Below, in pieces: positions 27,013 through 48,417 of a stretch of DNA of 64,000 nucleotides (position 1 is its first letter; each line of letters opens with the position of its first letter). Position numbers and translations under genes: made by a program. A model generated the notes under the pieces. That model was not told where the DNA came from. It saw only the letters and a program-made list of their open reading frames with translations, and made no database searches. Source of the DNA: Rhodococcus sp. Z13 (lineage in GTDB: Bacteria > Actinomycetota > Actinomycetes > Mycobacteriales > Mycobacteriaceae); contig NZ_CP107551.1 in assembly GCF_025837095.1 (NCBI RefSeq), positions 3,156,668 through 3,220,667 of the forward strand, in the 5' to 3' direction.

Positions 27013-28293
27013 TCAGTTACCGTTCGCCGTGCGCACGACACCGGGCGGGTTCGTGCCGAAGATTCCCGAACCGTCGAGCATCGGGCCGATCCAGTCCACC
27101 GACCGTCCCTGAAAGTCGTTGATGGCGTGGGTCTGCGTGGCCATCAGGTCGGTGAGGTACCGGCCGAAGGGGTGCTTGTTGTAGATACCGGTACCACCGG
27201 CGACGCGGTAGAGCTCGGTGCCGTAGCGGGCCGCCCGCGCCGGGATGTACGCCGACTGGAAACGGAACTCCTCCAAGCGTTCCGGGCTCACCTTGTTGCC
27301 ACCGGCCGCCTCGGCGATCACCGCGCCGTAGTTCGCGTACAACCGGCCCTTGGCCTCGCTGACGAACGAGTACGCCTCGGCCAGGGCCAACGAGACCGCC
27401 GGGTTCACGCCCTTGCGGCCCTTGGCGCGGATGAAGTCGACCAGTGCGTCGGCCATGCCCTTGAGCGCACCGAGCGCGGTGGGGGCCTGGGTGGCACGCG
27501 AGAACACCTGGAAGAAGGGCAGTTCGAACAGCAGGCCGGTGTTCAGCGCCAGGCCCGGAGCGGTCCGGTCGTGCACCTCGTTCCAGGTCAGGCTGCGGTG
27601 GTCCGGGACGAAGGCGTCCTCGACGATGATGTCGTTGCTGCCGGTCGCGCGCAGACCCGACACGTCCCAGTTGTGGACGATCTCGTAGTCCTCGCGCGGC
27701 AGCAGCAGCACGTGGCTGCCGACGGGGCCGGGCCCGGGGGTGGGTTCGCCCTCGATGTTGGCGCCGAGCAGGGCCCAGTCGCAGTAGTCGCTGCCCGAGG
27801 AGAACGACCAGCGGCCCGACAGTCGGAAGCCGCCCTCGACGCGCTTGGCGATCTGCGGCGCGTACGGCGAGCTCACCAGGGTCTTCGGGTTCGACGACCA
27901 CACCTCGGCCTGGGCGCGCTCGTCGAAGAAGCCGAGGTGGAAGTGGTGGATGCCCACCACGCCGAGCACCCAGCCGACGGAGGGATCACCCTCGGCGAGG
28001 ATCGAGGTCACCTCGAACGACTCGATCGGCGAGAGCTCGTGGCCGCCGAAGGCCCGCGGCTGCAGCATCTGGAAGAAGCCGGCCCGCTGCAGATCGTCGA
28101 TCGTCTCGGGGAGAATCCGGTCGTGCTGTGCCTGTCGTGCTGCACGCTCCTTGAGCGTCGGGACGAGGTCCCGGGCGCGCTGAACCATCAGCGAGGAGCT
28201 GAAGTCCCCCACCAGAAACGGGGTGATCTGGGAGATCATGGCGTCGTCCTGGTCCTGTCCGCCGCGGAGGGGGGCGAGAACGGTCTCGGTCAT
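27013..28293 (-). CDS. flavin-dependent monooxygenase, HsaA/HpaH-C2-like oxygenase component
   Basis: 426 residues with an acyl-CoA dehydrogenase-like fold: RILPETIDDLQRAGFFQMLQPRAFGGHE, GDPSVGWVLGVVGIHHFHLG, RWSFSSGSDYCDWALLG and SEAKGRLYANYG. This is the group D two-component monooxygenase family that hydroxylates phenols using reduced flavin (HsaA for 3-HSA, C2 for 4-hydroxyphenylacetate). It needs a separate flavin reductase; the best candidate is the gene at 39234 on the other strand. Start at 28293 follows GAAAGGA. Last gene of the minus-strand unit starting at 31937. Exact substrate unknown. Confidence 0.8.
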   Translation of the reverse strand: MTETVLAPLRGGQDQDDAMISQITPFLVGDFSSSLMVQRARDLVPTLKERAARQAQHDRILPETIDDLQRAGFFQMLQPRAFGGHELSPIESFEVTSILAEGDPSVGWVLGVVGIHHFHLGFFDERAQAEVWSSNPKTLVSSPYAPQIAKRVEGGFRLSGRWSFSSGSDYCDWALLGANIEGEPTPGPGPVGSHVLLLPREDYEIVHNWDVSGLRATGSNDIIVEDAFVPDHRSLTWNEVHDRTAPGLALNTGLLFELPFFQVFSRATQAPTALGALKGMADALVDFIRAKGRKGVNPAVSLALAEAYSFVSEAKGRLYANYGAVIAEAAGGNKVSPERLEEFRFQSAYIPARAARYGTELYRVAGGTGIYNKHPFGRYLTDLMATQTHAINDFQGRSVDWIGPMLDGSGIFGTNPPGVVRTANGN

Positions 28294-28357
28294 GGCTCGT
28301 TCCTTTCTTTCATCGGCCGGCGGCCGGGCGGTGCTGCCGCCGGGCACGATGGCGTGG

Positions 28358-45763: not shown

Positions 45764-48417
45764 GCACCGACAGGACCGACCCGTTCGGGTCGCTGCGGAC
45801 ACTGCCGGTCGAGGACGCGACCGGCGCCCCGCTGTACTACCACAGCCTGGCCGAGGCCGAGGCGGGCGGCGCGGGACCGATCGCCGACCTGCCCTGGTCG
45901 CTGCGGACGCTCGCCGAAGGGGTCCTGCGTCACCAGGGACACCCGCAGGCGACGCCCGAGCACGTCCGGGCCATCACCCGGCGCGACACGTCCGCCGCGA
46001 TCCCGTTCTTCCCCGGCCGGGTGCTGTTCCAGGACGCCTCCGGCATCCCCGTGCTGGCCGACATGATCACCCTCCTCGAGCGGGCCCGGGCCGAAGGCCT
46101 GGACACCGCCGCGCTCGAGCCGGCGCTGCCCCTCGACCTCGTCGTGGACCACGCCCTCGAGGTCGACGAGTACGGCAGTTCCGTTGCGGCCGAGAAGAAC
46201 ATCGATCTGGAGTACGCGCGGCACCGGGATCGCTACCGGTTCCTGCGCTGGGCCCAGGACCGCCTGCCCGGCCTACGGGTGGTGCCGCCCGGCACCGGCA
46301 TCTGCCACCAGCTCAACCTCGAGGTGCTCGCCCCCGTGGTGACCACCGTCGAATCCGGTGACCGTCACGTCGCCGCCCTCGACATGCTGGTCGGCACCGA
46401 CTCGCACACCACCATGATCAACGCCCTGGGCGTGACCGGCTGGGGTGTCGGCGGCATCGAGGCCACCGCGGCCGCGCTGGGCCAGGCCGTCATGATCCGC
46501 GTCCCCCGCGTCGTCGGCGTCGAGCTCACCGGACGGCTCGCACCGGGGGTGTTCGCCTCCGATCTGGCACTGACCCTCGCCGAGAAGCTGCGCGCCCTGA
46601 ACGTCGTCGGCGCCGTCGTCGAGTTCTACGGCCCCGGCCTGTCGGCGCTGTCGGTGCCCGACCGCGCGACCGTCGCCAACATGGCCCCCGAGTACGGGGC
46701 GACCATGGCCTGGTTCCCCGCCGACCGCCGGACCATCGCCTACCTGGCCGCCACGGGCCGCTCCCCCGAGCGCGTCCACCTGGCCGAGCAGTACCTGAAG
46801 GCGCAGGGCCTGTTCCACACCGAGGACAGCCCCGCCCCCCGGTTCGAGACCACGCTGTCGCTCGATCTGGGCAGAATCGCGACCACCCTCGCGGGCCCGT
46901 CCCGGCCGCACGACGCGCTGACGTTGTCCGAGGTGCCCACCTCCGCGGGCGAGAACGCCTCCGGCACCGGTGATTCCGCGTCGCCGAAGGACGGTGACAT
47001 CGCGATCGCCGCCATCACCAGCTGCACCAACACCTCGAATCCGCGTTCCCTCGTGGCGGCGGGTCTGCTGGCACGCAACGCGGTCGCGGCCGGACTGCGG
47101 CCCCCGGCGTGGACGAAGACCTCGTTCACCCCCGGTTCGCGGGCCGCGGCGGACCTGCTGGCCTCCGCGGGACTGCAGGAACACCTGGACCGGCTCGGTT
47201 TCCAGGTCGCGGGTTTCGGATGCGGAACGTGCATGGGCAATTCCGGGCCGCTCGGCCCGGTGCCGGCCGCCTCCGACCGGACCGAGGGCACGGCCCTGGC
47301 GGCGGTGCTGTCCGGCAACCGCAACTTCACCGGCCGCATCCACCCGGCGGTGGCGCACGCCTACCTCGCCTCACCCGCGATGGTCGTGGCGTACGCGCTG
47401 GCCGGGAACGTCCGTGTGGACCTGACGAACGACCCCGTCGGGCACCGTGAGGACGGCACGGCCGTCACCCTTGCCGATCTGTGGCCGTCCGACGAGGAGA
47501 TCGACGCGCTGCTCGCCGAGCACGAGTCCGCCGCCCTCGGCCGCGGTGCGCAACGGGAGCTGACCACCGCCCGCTGGCAGGAACTCGAGTACCCGCGCGG
47601 GGAGCACTACCAGTGGGACGGGGAGTCCGGCAGCATCCGGCGTCCCCCGTTCACCGATCCCGAGCTGACCTCGCCCACCCTCACCGGCGACCTGACCGCC
47701 CGACCCCTGCTGGTCCTCGGGGACGCGGTGACCACCGACCACATCTCGCCGGTGGCGCGGGTGCTCCCCGACTCCGCCGCGGGCCGGTGGCTGCGCGAGC
47801 GCGGTGTCGACGAGCGGTCGCTGGGCACCTTCAGCTCCCGTCGTCTCAACCACGACGTGATGATCCGGGGCGGCTTCGCCAACACCCGGCTCGTCAACCT
47901 GCTGGTGCCCGAGAAGCAGGGCGGCTGGACCCGCACCGCCCCCGGCACGGAACCGGTGCCCGTGCACGAGGCCGCCGAATACCACCGCAGCCAGGGCACC
48001 CCGGTCGTGGTGGTCGCCGGCGAACTCTACGGCGCCGGATCGGCACGCGACTGGGCCGCGAAGGTGACCCGCCTGCTCGGCATCCGTGCGGTCCTCGCCC
48101 GGAGCTTCGAACGCATCCACCGCACCAATCTGGTTGCAATGGGCGTACTTCCGATCCAGTGGGAGGGTCCCGCTCCCGAAAGCTTCGACGGCAGCGAGGA
48201 GATCGATCTGCTCGGCCTGTCGGAGCTCGGCTCCACCACCGAGATCACCGTCCGTGTCCGCCGCAACGGCGAGATCCTGTGGAAGGACACGGCGACCTGC
48301 CGCATCGACACTCCCCTGGAATGGGAGTGGCTGCGCGCGGGGGGACTGTTCGGCCACCTGCTCACCCAGCAGGCGAACCGGCAACGTGCGACGACGGAGC
48401 GGAACCCGCTCGGCTAG
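45760..48417 (+). CDS. aconitase-family hydratase (AcnA type)
   Basis: 885 residues with GTG start. [4Fe-4S] ligands Cys422 (AITSCTNTSNP), Cys488 and Cys491 (GFGCGTCMGNSGPL). DLVVDHALEVDEYGS, VPPGTGICHQ, LVGTDSHTTMINALGV and the swivel-domain GAGSARDWAAKV and RSFERIHRTNL are standard for AcnA. Cotranscribed with iclR, a CoA-transferase and a citryl-CoA-lyase-like gene rather than standing alone like housekeeping acnA, so it is probably dedicated to a citrate-like pathway intermediate, although citrate itself is possible. Confidence 0.92.
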   Translation: MSTDRTDPFGSLRTLPVEDATGAPLYYHSLAEAEAGGAGPIADLPWSLRTLAEGVLRHQGHPQATPEHVRAITRRDTSAAIPFFPGRVLFQDASGIPVLADMITLLERARAEGLDTAALEPALPLDLVVDHALEVDEYGSSVAAEKNIDLEYARHRDRYRFLRWAQDRLPGLRVVPPGTGICHQLNLEVLAPVVTTVESGDRHVAALDMLVGTDSHTTMINALGVTGWGVGGIEATAAALGQAVMIRVPRVVGVELTGRLAPGVFASDLALTLAEKLRALNVVGAVVEFYGPGLSALSVPDRATVANMAPEYGATMAWFPADRRTIAYLAATGRSPERVHLAEQYLKAQGLFHTEDSPAPRFETTLSLDLGRIATTLAGPSRPHDALTLSEVPTSAGENASGTGDSASPKDGDIAIAAITSCTNTSNPRSLVAAGLLARNAVAAGLRPPAWTKTSFTPGSRAAADLLASAGLQEHLDRLGFQVAGFGCGTCMGNSGPLGPVPAASDRTEGTALAAVLSGNRNFTGRIHPAVAHAYLASPAMVVAYALAGNVRVDLTNDPVGHREDGTAVTLADLWPSDEEIDALLAEHESAALGRGAQRELTTARWQELEYPRGEHYQWDGESGSIRRPPFTDPELTSPTLTGDLTARPLLVLGDAVTTDHISPVARVLPDSAAGRWLRERGVDERSLGTFSSRRLNHDVMIRGGFANTRLVNLLVPEKQGGWTRTAPGTEPVPVHEAAEYHRSQGTPVVVVAGELYGAGSARDWAAKVTRLLGIRAVLARSFERIHRTNLVAMGVLPIQWEGPAPESFDGSEEIDLLGLSELGSTTEITVRVRRNGEILWKDTATCRIDTPLEWEWLRAGGLFGHLLTQQANRQRATTERNPLG

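What the first reader, a model, noticed from the sequence alone, without database searches (positions are those of the whole stretch)
27013..48417. Catabolic cluster joining aromatic ring oxidation to citrate-like chemistry
Seen: P450 system, two-component flavin monooxygenase, two-subunit intradiol dioxygenase, two CoA-transferases, CoA ligase, two citryl-CoA-lyase-like proteins, MmgE/PrpD, AcnA, crotonase, thioesterase and two carboxylate carriers, in five transcription units. None of pcaB, pcaC, pcaD, pcaIJ or pcaF is present. Known: PcaGH makes 3-carboxymuconate, a tricarboxylate; AcnA and MmgE/PrpD act on tricarboxylates; citryl-CoA lyase splits citryl-CoA. Inference: the ring-fission tricarboxylate is hydrated to a citrate analogue, activated by CoA transfer and cleaved to acetyl-CoA and a 2-oxoacid, bypassing the beta-ketoadipate route. 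I know of no described pathway with this set.
Basis: partly seen in the sequence, partly recalled or inferred. Interest (0 to 1): 0.85.

Follow-up and report, generated by a model that had tools for sequence, protein, structure and literature searches.

The report
Aromatic-degradation island with citrate-type enzymes
A block of about 20 neighbouring genes, shared as one unit by two Rhodococcus and three Streptomyces bacteria, appears to open an aromatic ring and then break the opened acid down with enzymes related to those that handle citrate, which would be a new way to finish aromatic degradation; no step has been tested in the laboratory.

Summary
In detail: all named genes lie at 27013-48417, plus a MarR gene at 24690. 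The PcaH-like dioxygenase is rare: 81-89% identity in four other genomes. In 5 of 5 carriers (2 Rhodococcus, 3 Streptomyces) the same 20 genes lie together, with the citrate block on opposite sides of the aromatic block in the two genera. Both blocks diverge equally (medians 78% and 77%) and trees agree: one island.

Corrections: lyase CCL1, like 31 of 31 relatives examined, lacks the His and Asp of citryl-CoA lyase; CCL2 keeps both. The dioxygenase keeps its iron ligands but has an altered pocket. The block's aconitase has an active-site Ser to Ala. Canonical pcaHG and pcaB lie elsewhere. The citrate block also occurs alone.

Best reading: intradiol ring fission to a tricarboxylate, aconitase-type hydration, CoA transfer, CCL2 cleavage. 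Substrate unknown; no reaction shown. No description in print was found.

The parts
24690..25253 (+). MarR-type regulator, edge of the aromatic block
   Evidence: Pfam MarR_2; orthologue beside MO in 5 of 5 genomes
27013..28293 (-). MO: HsaA-like flavin-dependent phenol hydroxylase, oxygenase component
   Evidence: Pfam Acyl-CoA_dh_2, NCBIfam HsaA 277.2 bits, below cut-off 450; PDB 3-HSA hydroxylase E 1e-63
28358..29968 (-). LIG: AMP-binding acyl-CoA ligase
   Evidence: Pfam AMP-binding + C domain; CCL1 end overlaps LIG start by 4 bases
29965..30738 (-). CCL1: citrate-synthase-fold protein filed as citryl-CoA lyase (PRK06224 type 5) but without the catalytic His and Asp
   Evidence: NCBIfam NF004868 292.5 bits, cut-off 193; residues
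30735..31937 (-). CaiB1: class III CoA-transferase
   Evidence: Pfam CoA_transf_3 E 1.5e-118
32183..33526 (-). MFS1: metabolite:H+ symporter, shikimate-transporter-like
33767..35128 (+). P450 (true start uncertain); best solved relative 5xjn (recalled as CreJ)
   Evidence: haem motif
35121..35429 (+). [2Fe-2S] ferredoxin
   Evidence: Pfam Fer2
35441..36667 (+). FdR: ferredoxin reductase
   Evidence: Pfam Pyr_redox_2 + Reductase_C
36664..37449 (+). PcaH-like intradiol dioxygenase beta subunit; iron ligands kept, pocket changed
   Evidence: clade of 5 on a branch of 1.76 changes per column
37461..37961 (+). PcaG-like alpha subunit, shortened
   Evidence: TIGR02423 107.8 bits; PDB alpha chains; alignment
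37994..38779 (+). ECH: crotonase-family hydratase
   Evidence: the 3 plasmid relatives examined sit beside HMG-CoA lyase and a CoA-transferase
38788..39237 (+). TE: hot-dog thioesterase
   Evidence: Pfam 4HBT_2 E 3e-16
39234..39749 (+). FlvR: flavin reductase, likely partner of MO; here without the C-terminal extension present in the four relatives
   Evidence: Pfam Flavin_Reduct, NCBIfam HsaB 167.1 bits, below cut-off 230; alignment
39954..41375 (-). PrpD: MmgE/PrpD-family protein (start read by eye)
   Evidence: Pfam MmgE_PrpD_N and _C; nearest other match in 394 class genomes 36% identical
41384..42715 (-). MFS2: metabolite:H+ symporter with resemblance to the tricarballylate symporter TcuC
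   Evidence: TcuC 244.3 bits, cut-off 445
42742..43638 (+). IclR-type regulator (start uncertain)
   Evidence: Pfam IclR_C and HTH_IclR
43635..44840 (+). CaiB2: class III CoA-transferase
   Evidence: Pfam CoA_transf_3 E 1.8e-119
44837..45763 (+). CCL2: citryl-CoA-lyase-like with catalytic His, His and Asp intact
   Evidence: NCBIfam NF004864 408.2 bits, cut-off 261; 6hxp alignment
45760..48417 (+). AcnA-type aconitase, Fe-S cysteines kept, active-site GSSR changed to GSAR

Best explanation
A horizontally inherited catabolic island for one substituted phenolic acid. Inferred steps: MFS1 imports the acid. The P450 system oxidises or demethylates a ring substituent. MO/FlvR adds the second hydroxyl. 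The dedicated PcaGH-like enzyme opens the catechol between the hydroxyls, giving a substituted muconate with three carboxylates. Instead of lactonisation (pcaB, C, D), the product is hydrated to a citrate-like tertiary alcohol by AcnA, PrpD or, as its CoA ester, by the crotonase. It is activated by a CaiB transferase and cleaved by CCL2 to acetyl-CoA (or acyl-CoA) plus a 2-oxoacid. LIG, CCL1, ECH and TE do further acyl-CoA steps whose order I cannot fix. Shown by sequence: gene content, conserved linkage, intact catalytic residues in PcaH, CCL2 and the Fe-S site of AcnA, and changed residues at likely substrate sites in PcaGH and AcnA. Inferred: every reaction and the substrate.
For: The same 20 genes lie together in 5 of 5 carriers in two genera, with the citrate block on opposite flanks and in opposite orientation. 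Equal divergence of both blocks: Rhodococcus-Streptomyces medians 78.3/78.3/77.8% for 14 aromatic genes and 77.3/77.4/77.6% for 6 citrate genes, against 66-69% for the best TrpS match. CCL2, CaiB2 and PcaH trees each give one 100/100 clade of the same five, with the Streptomyces three together. The dioxygenase differs from 105 canonical PcaH at a Tyr conserved in 105 of 105 and a Trp conserved in 100 of 105 that I recall as pocket residues, so its product may not suit PcaB. The strain already has canonical pcaHG and pcaB. AcnA is a third AcnA-type copy below the TIGR01341 cut-off, with Ser to Ala beside the recalled catalytic Ser. Independent parallels: L112, a run of FAD monooxygenase, two hydrolases, CaiB, CCL1-type, intradiol dioxygenase and an aconitase-C subunit with gaps under 100 bases (no large aconitase subunit was recognised beside it); C. 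necator pBB2, CCL1-type, ligase and intradiol dioxygenase, then two regulator genes, then CaiB, HMG-CoA lyase and LeuCD. CCL2-CaiB with a TctABC importer in Ruegeria fits citrate cleavage.
Against: The citrate block occurs without the aromatic half in most genomes that have it: 6 of 8 genomes with CCL2-type matches of 64% identity or more among 101; 18 of the 19 class genomes with CCL2-type matches are not the own genome, the only one of 394 with the PcaH-like protein (the two draws were not compared genome by genome). The intradiol HMM found nothing in 13 of 13 stand-alone CCL2 loci. In G009 and Agrobacterium the block sits with an FAD dehydrogenase and an aldehyde dehydrogenase, which suggests a tricarballylate- or aconitate-like substrate. 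No enzyme for the expected 2-oxoacid product is recognised in the island. CCL1 is not an ordinary lyase. One of the two pBB2 clusters also holds a maleylacetate reductase, which fits an ordinary hydroxyquinol route. In L177/L181/L187 CCL2 lies near a canonical pca cluster (followed in L187 to genes read as pcaI, J, F and B, the last a Lyase_1 match), so there it is not a substitute. The five carriers descend from few transfer events, so they are not five independent tests. CCL1-intradiol linkage was 2 of 25 unbiased loci, P about 0.08.
Confidence: 0.45

Rival explanations
1. Two pathways on one island. The aromatic half degrades a phenolic acid by its own CoA steps or into central routes; the citrate block is a separate importer and cleavage module (MFS2, PrpD, AcnA, CaiB2, CCL2) for a tricarboxylate such as citrate, aconitate or tricarballylate from the same plant material.
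For: Stand-alone citrate blocks are common and pair with TctABC and acetate kinase/phosphate acetyltransferase (Ruegeria) or with FAD and aldehyde dehydrogenases (G009 with an MFS carrier; Agrobacterium). Each half has its own regulator and carrier. CCL2-CaiB also sits in a quinate/shikimate-type cluster, consistent with co-occurring plant acids.
Against: The aromatic half was not seen without this block (5 of 5), through at least one rearrangement. The block's version differs from G009's: PrpD in place of the FAD and aldehyde dehydrogenases. The aromatic half has no recognisable lower pathway of its own.
Confidence: 0.35
2. Aromatic half feeds the chromosomal beta-ketoadipate route. The PcaGH-like enzyme is a substrate variant whose product goes to PcaB.
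For: pcaB (365.8 bits, over cut-off) and canonical pcaHG are in the genome.
Against: The pocket is changed at canonical residues; the island has its own ligase, CoA-transferase, crotonase and thioesterase, which that route does not need.
Confidence: 0.1
3. Self-contained CoA route in the aromatic half alone: CaiB1 or LIG activates the ring-opened acid, ECH hydrates it to a 3-hydroxy-3-carboxy acyl-CoA, and CCL1 cleaves it; AcnA and PrpD are not needed.
For: CaiB1-CCL1-LIG are overlapping genes. The 3 plasmid relatives of ECH and the 1 of CaiB1 that I examined sit with HMG-CoA lyase, whose usual substrate comes from a crotonase. CCL1-type proteins occur near intradiol enzymes in L112, L113 and pBB2.
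Against: CCL1 lacks the residues that make the acetyl-CoA enolate in this fold (roles recalled); most CCL1-type loci examined have no intradiol enzyme (23 of 25).
Confidence: 0.1

Closest known systems
Protocatechuate branch of the beta-ketoadipate pathway (PcaGH, PcaB, PcaC, PcaD, PcaIJ, PcaF)
   Same: Two-subunit intradiol dioxygenase with the iron ligands; CoA-transferase and acyl-CoA chemistry downstream
   Different: No pcaB, C, D, I, J or F among the scanned genes; dioxygenase 46% identical to the genome's own PcaH with an altered pocket; citrate-type enzymes instead
Citryl-CoA lyase of the reductive TCA cycle (Hydrogenobacter 6hxp; source recalled)
   Same: CCL2 has the fold and the catalytic His and Asp; CaiB2 precedes it
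   Different: Class III transferase in place of citryl-CoA synthetase (recalled); linked to aromatic genes; the other lyase, CCL1, lacks the residues
Methylcitrate cycle (PrpD, AcnD/AcnA) and tricarballylate use (TcuABC)
   Same: MmgE/PrpD plus aconitase; TcuC-like carrier; the G009 block has an FAD_binding_2 oxidoreductase
   Different: PrpD scores only 21.9 bits against the actinobacterial PrpD model, cut-off 950; cleavage by CoA transfer and CCL2
Gallate/protocatechuate 4,5-cleavage lower pathway (4-oxalomesaconate, CHA aldolase; recalled)
   Same: Also hydrates a ring-fission tricarboxylate to a citrate-like tertiary alcohol before C-C cleavage
   Different: Extradiol cleavage and a free-acid aldolase there; CoA thioesters here (inferred)
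C. glutamicum cre system (P450 CreJ with its own ferredoxin and reductase; recalled)
   Same: P450 closest to 5xjn/5gwe among solved structures, with ferredoxin and reductase genes
   Different: No phosphorylating CreHI or CreD enzymes among the scanned genes

Membership tests
Protocatechuate 3,4-dioxygenase | Four iron ligands (2 Tyr, 2 His; identities recalled) in the beta subunit | tested here: met
   Alignment to 2pcd chain M keeps Y, Y, H, H
Protocatechuate 3,4-dioxygenase | Curated family score (TIGR02422 296.4; TIGR02423 126.25) | tested here: not met
   243.0 and 107.8 bits
Protocatechuate 3,4-dioxygenase | Residues that hold the substrate carboxylate (Tyr324b, Trp449b, Tyr16a; roles and numbers recalled) | tested here: not met
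   Tyr (105/105 canonical) is Ser, Trp (100/105) is Phe with a 2-residue insertion; Tyr16a position is Leu
Citryl-CoA lyase: CCL2 | Family score and catalytic His/Asp | tested here: met
   408.2 against cut-off 261; VHGG, GHR, NID kept
Citryl-CoA lyase: CCL1 | Catalytic His and Asp of the citrate synthase fold | tested here: not met
   Phe and Thr in the window; none of 31 distinct homologous rows keeps either residue (21, 10 distinct)
Aconitase AcnA | Fe-S cysteine motifs | tested here: met
   SCTNTSNP and GCGTC
Aconitase AcnA | TIGR01341 cut-off 945 and GSSR active-site motif | tested here: not met
   930.9 bits; GSAR in 7 of 7 block aconitases examined, GSSR in both housekeeping copies; the PRK12881 cut-off is met (1016.8 vs 905)
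2-methylcitrate dehydratase PrpD | Family score (NF042438, cut-off 950) | tested here: not met
   21.9 bits
HsaA/HsaB monooxygenase | Family scores (450; 230) | tested here: not met
   277.2 and 167.1 bits
Beta-ketoadipate pathway cluster | pcaB, C, D, I, J, F with the dioxygenase | tested here: not met
   None among the scanned genes; pcaB at 4.25 Mb
One pathway from aromatic to citrate-like cleavage | Dioxygenase product is the substrate of the citrate block | not testable with these tools
   Needs enzymes or mutants

The most novel reading that the evidence does not exclude
A second general way to finish intradiol ring cleavage: the opened polycarboxylate is hydrated by an aconitase-family enzyme, joined to CoA by a CaiB-type transferase and split by a citrate-synthase-fold or HMG-CoA lyase. 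It would have been assembled more than once (this island; the L112 gene run; Cupriavidus necator pBB2), and would include CCL1, a lyase subfamily now misnamed citryl-CoA lyase that works without the usual His and Asp.
Probability: 0.3. Interest if true: 0.85.

Novelty: new variant of a known kind. Interest (0 to 1): 0.6.

Why it matters
Intradiol cleavage is usually taught as leading to lactones and beta-ketoadipate. An island that ties it to citrate-type cleavage would be a new lower pathway, with enzymes for converting substituted lignin-type aromatics that the usual route may handle poorly. It also flags that a set of proteins named 'citryl-CoA lyase' lacks that enzyme's catalytic residues and needs a new function.

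Tried and rejected
Rejected: 'the two halves are separate in Streptomyces'. I first concluded this from 10-kb flanks (note); one search found CCL2 on the same contigs beyond the MarR side and one search confirmed it (corrected). Rejected: CCL1 as a plain citryl-CoA lyase. Weak: enrichment of intradiol genes near CCL1-type genes. A first count of 4 of 19 loci included two pBB2 loci chosen with foreknowledge (P 0.0004 used that count and should not be relied on). 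The count on loci picked by CCL1 similarity alone is 2 of 25, P about 0.08. From the CCL2 locus sets I left out the Rhodobacteraceae loci L177, L181 and L187, which came in by a PcaH search and do hold both genes.

Led nowhere: naming the substrate from plasmid relatives of P450, MO, LIG, ECH and CaiB1 (none at 60% identity or more); Microbacterium L126, whose PcaG is 46% like the island's but whose scanned neighbours include an ABC transporter, a CoA-transferase, a Crp-type regulator and unrelated families. The FlvR extension had no Pfam match at E up to 1.

Papers: only search listings with the start of abstracts were seen (capped at 10 of 12 papers and 15 of 31); no paper was opened. The library lacks most subscription journals.

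Full report
What is there. The window lies in a 4.53-Mb single-contig genome. Its genus is read as Rhodococcus because genome G007, labelled 'same genus', has the same 217,565-base contig and coordinates as the record of Rhodococcus sp. HM1. In order: MarR (+); a transposase with the DDE_Tnp_1_4 domain (+); MO, LIG, CCL1, CaiB1 (-, with LIG/CCL1/CaiB1 overlapping by 4 bases); MFS1 (-); P450, Fdx, FdR, PcaH, PcaG, ECH, TE, FlvR (+, tightly packed); PrpD, MFS2 (-); IclR, CaiB2, CCL2, AcnA (+, each overlapping by 4 bases).

Conservation. Among 101 genomes (own plus relatives) only G000 and G007 have this PcaH-like protein at high identity (100 and 89%); the other listed matches were at most 52%. 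In the genus set it is 2 of 18, and in an evenly drawn class sample 1 of 394, the own genome. A scan of 84,980 species genomes by peptide patterns kept the best 80 of 490 relatives: four at 81-89% (HM1, Streptomyces hirsutus, Streptomyces sp. NWU339, S. viridosporus), the other 76 at 53% or less. Patterns can miss moderately diverged members.

Linkage. In all four the 14 aromatic genes are syntenic. CCL2 orthologues lie on the same contigs, and matches to all 20 genes lie in one stretch in each genome (my simple ORF caller picked wrong-strand frames for a few of them, which tblastn resolves). In Rhodococcus the citrate block follows FlvR; in Streptomyces it lies beyond MarR, inverted. By eye, the flanking genes are shared by the two Rhodococcus (TrpS/ExoIII and Idh sides), shared by S. 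hirsutus and NWU339, and different in S. viridosporus, so the whole set sits at three kinds of site. Median identities to the window are 78.3, 78.3 and 77.8% (14 aromatic genes) and 77.3, 77.4 and 77.6% (6 citrate genes) for S. hirsutus, NWU339 and S. viridosporus, and 83.9 and 84.9% for HM1. TrpS, a housekeeping control, is 66-69% for the best match between the genera. Trees of PcaH, CCL2 and CaiB2 each give the five as one 100/100 clade with the Streptomyces three together (the Rhodococcus pair is weak in the PcaH tree). The nearest stand-alone CCL2 rows are from Rhodococcus G009, an R. koreensis plasmid and a same-family genome. This is common inheritance and transfer of one island, not five independent assemblies.

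The citrate block alone. CCL2-type proteins at 64% identity or more are in 8 of 101 genomes including the two carriers, and CCL2-type matches at E 1e-60 or better are in 19 of 394 class genomes including the own one. In 7 of 7 relatives' loci examined IclR, CaiB2 and CCL2 lie together, and AcnA was recognised in 2 of the 7. In G009 the block is aldehyde dehydrogenase, MFS, FAD_binding_2 oxidoreductase, IclR, CaiB2, CCL2, AcnA; Agrobacterium larrymoorei has the same set with no carrier listed and a gap in its gene table. Ruegeria has TctABC, CaiB, CCL2 and, on the other strand, acetate kinase and phosphate acetyltransferase, which fits citrate activation and cleavage. In the island PrpD stands where G009 has the two dehydrogenases. 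Azoarcus KH32C has CCL2 and CaiB with shikimate dehydrogenase and dehydroquinate dehydratase. Rhodobacteraceae L187 has CCL2 beside a protein with the two domain types I recall from dehydroshikimate dehydratases, about 9 kb from a pcaHG cluster.

Residues. PcaH keeps the four iron ligands, but among 105 canonical homologues a Tyr (105/105) is Ser and a Trp (100/105) is Phe with a two-residue insertion; PcaG has Leu where solved alpha chains have Tyr and lacks about 40 residues in its middle. I recall these as substrate-pocket residues; no call shows that. CCL2 aligns with the solved citryl-CoA lyase 6hxp with His and Asp kept. CCL1 and all 21 homologues, plus 11 rows (10 distinct genes), have Phe, Tyr or Ile for the His and Thr, Ser or Ala for the Asp. 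AcnA keeps the Fe-S cysteines, but in 7 of 7 block aconitases examined (4 of the 5 island copies, 3 stand-alone) GSSR is GSAR, unlike the two housekeeping copies. PrpD aligns with IDS-epimerase and cis-aconitate decarboxylase at E 2e-19 to 2e-15, with several recalled active-site residues changed; its nearest other match in 394 class genomes is 36% identical.

Parallels. L112, in a genome of the same family, is a compact run of FAD monooxygenase, alpha/beta hydrolase, amidohydrolase, CaiB, CCL1-type, intradiol dioxygenase and an aconitase-C subunit; no large aconitase subunit was recognised beside it. C. necator N-1 pBB2 has CCL1-type + ligase in the same gene run as an intradiol dioxygenase twice. 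One copy is followed, after two regulator genes, by CaiB, HMG-CoA lyase, LeuC and LeuD. The other also holds a maleylacetate reductase, which fits an ordinary hydroxyquinol route. L113 has an HpaB-type monooxygenase, an intradiol dioxygenase, a muconate-cycloisomerase-superfamily enzyme, ligase and CCL1-type. On loci chosen only by CCL1 similarity the link is 2 of 25 (expected 0.47, P 0.08), so these are examples, not a proven enrichment.

Mechanism. The chemistry that fits is: phenol to catechol by MO/FlvR; P450 oxidation or demethylation of a substituent; intradiol cleavage to a substituted muconate tricarboxylate; hydration to a tertiary alcohol; CoA transfer; cleavage by CCL2 to acetyl-CoA and a 2-oxoacid. 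The modified AcnA and PcaGH argue for non-standard substrates. The order of LIG, CaiB1, CCL1, ECH and TE, and the fate of the 2-oxoacid, are open. The main rival is two pathways on one island for plant-derived aromatic and tricarboxylic acids. I put one pathway at 0.45 and that rival at 0.35.

Known or not. Nine searches of the open-access library returned no paper whose listed title or abstract start describes such a cluster; a tenth looked for CreJ. Two listings were capped (10 of 12, 15 of 31), no paper was opened, and most subscription journals are not held. All protein families are known; the combination is what looks new.

Checking.

Noticed in passing
39234-39749; L115:12475-13710; L116:12539-13702: In HM1 and the three Streptomyces the flavin reductase carries a C-terminal extension of about 220 residues (by eye like an IclR effector domain; no Pfam match at E up to 1 for the two scanned). 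The window copy ends right after the reductase domain.
   Followed up: partly
25437-26831: A transposase gene (Pfam DDE_Tnp_1_4; IS1380 type recalled) lies between MarR and MO in the window only; in the other four islands MarR and MO are directly adjacent.
   Followed up: partly
29965-30738 and CCL1-type loci L104-L114, L195-L200, L279, L282, L296-L304: The proteins named citryl-CoA lyase that resemble CCL1 lack the catalytic His and Asp; several annotated ones sit in acyl-CoA clusters with SDR, acyl-CoA dehydrogenase or HMG-CoA lyase. The name is probably wrong.
   Followed up: partly
33767-35128: The five island P450s have AGHEAVT in the I helix where the best solved relative has AGHETTT, so the usual Thr (recalled) is Ala.
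   Followed up: no
L273 (Azoarcus KH32C), L187: CCL2-type genes lie inside or beside quinate/shikimate-type catabolic clusters; the reason is unknown.
   Followed up: no
L118:15726-18069: Next to the S. viridosporus island are ORFs that look by eye like a 4-hydroxy-2-oxovalerate aldolase, acetaldehyde dehydrogenase and hydratase of meta-cleavage pathways.
   Followed up: no
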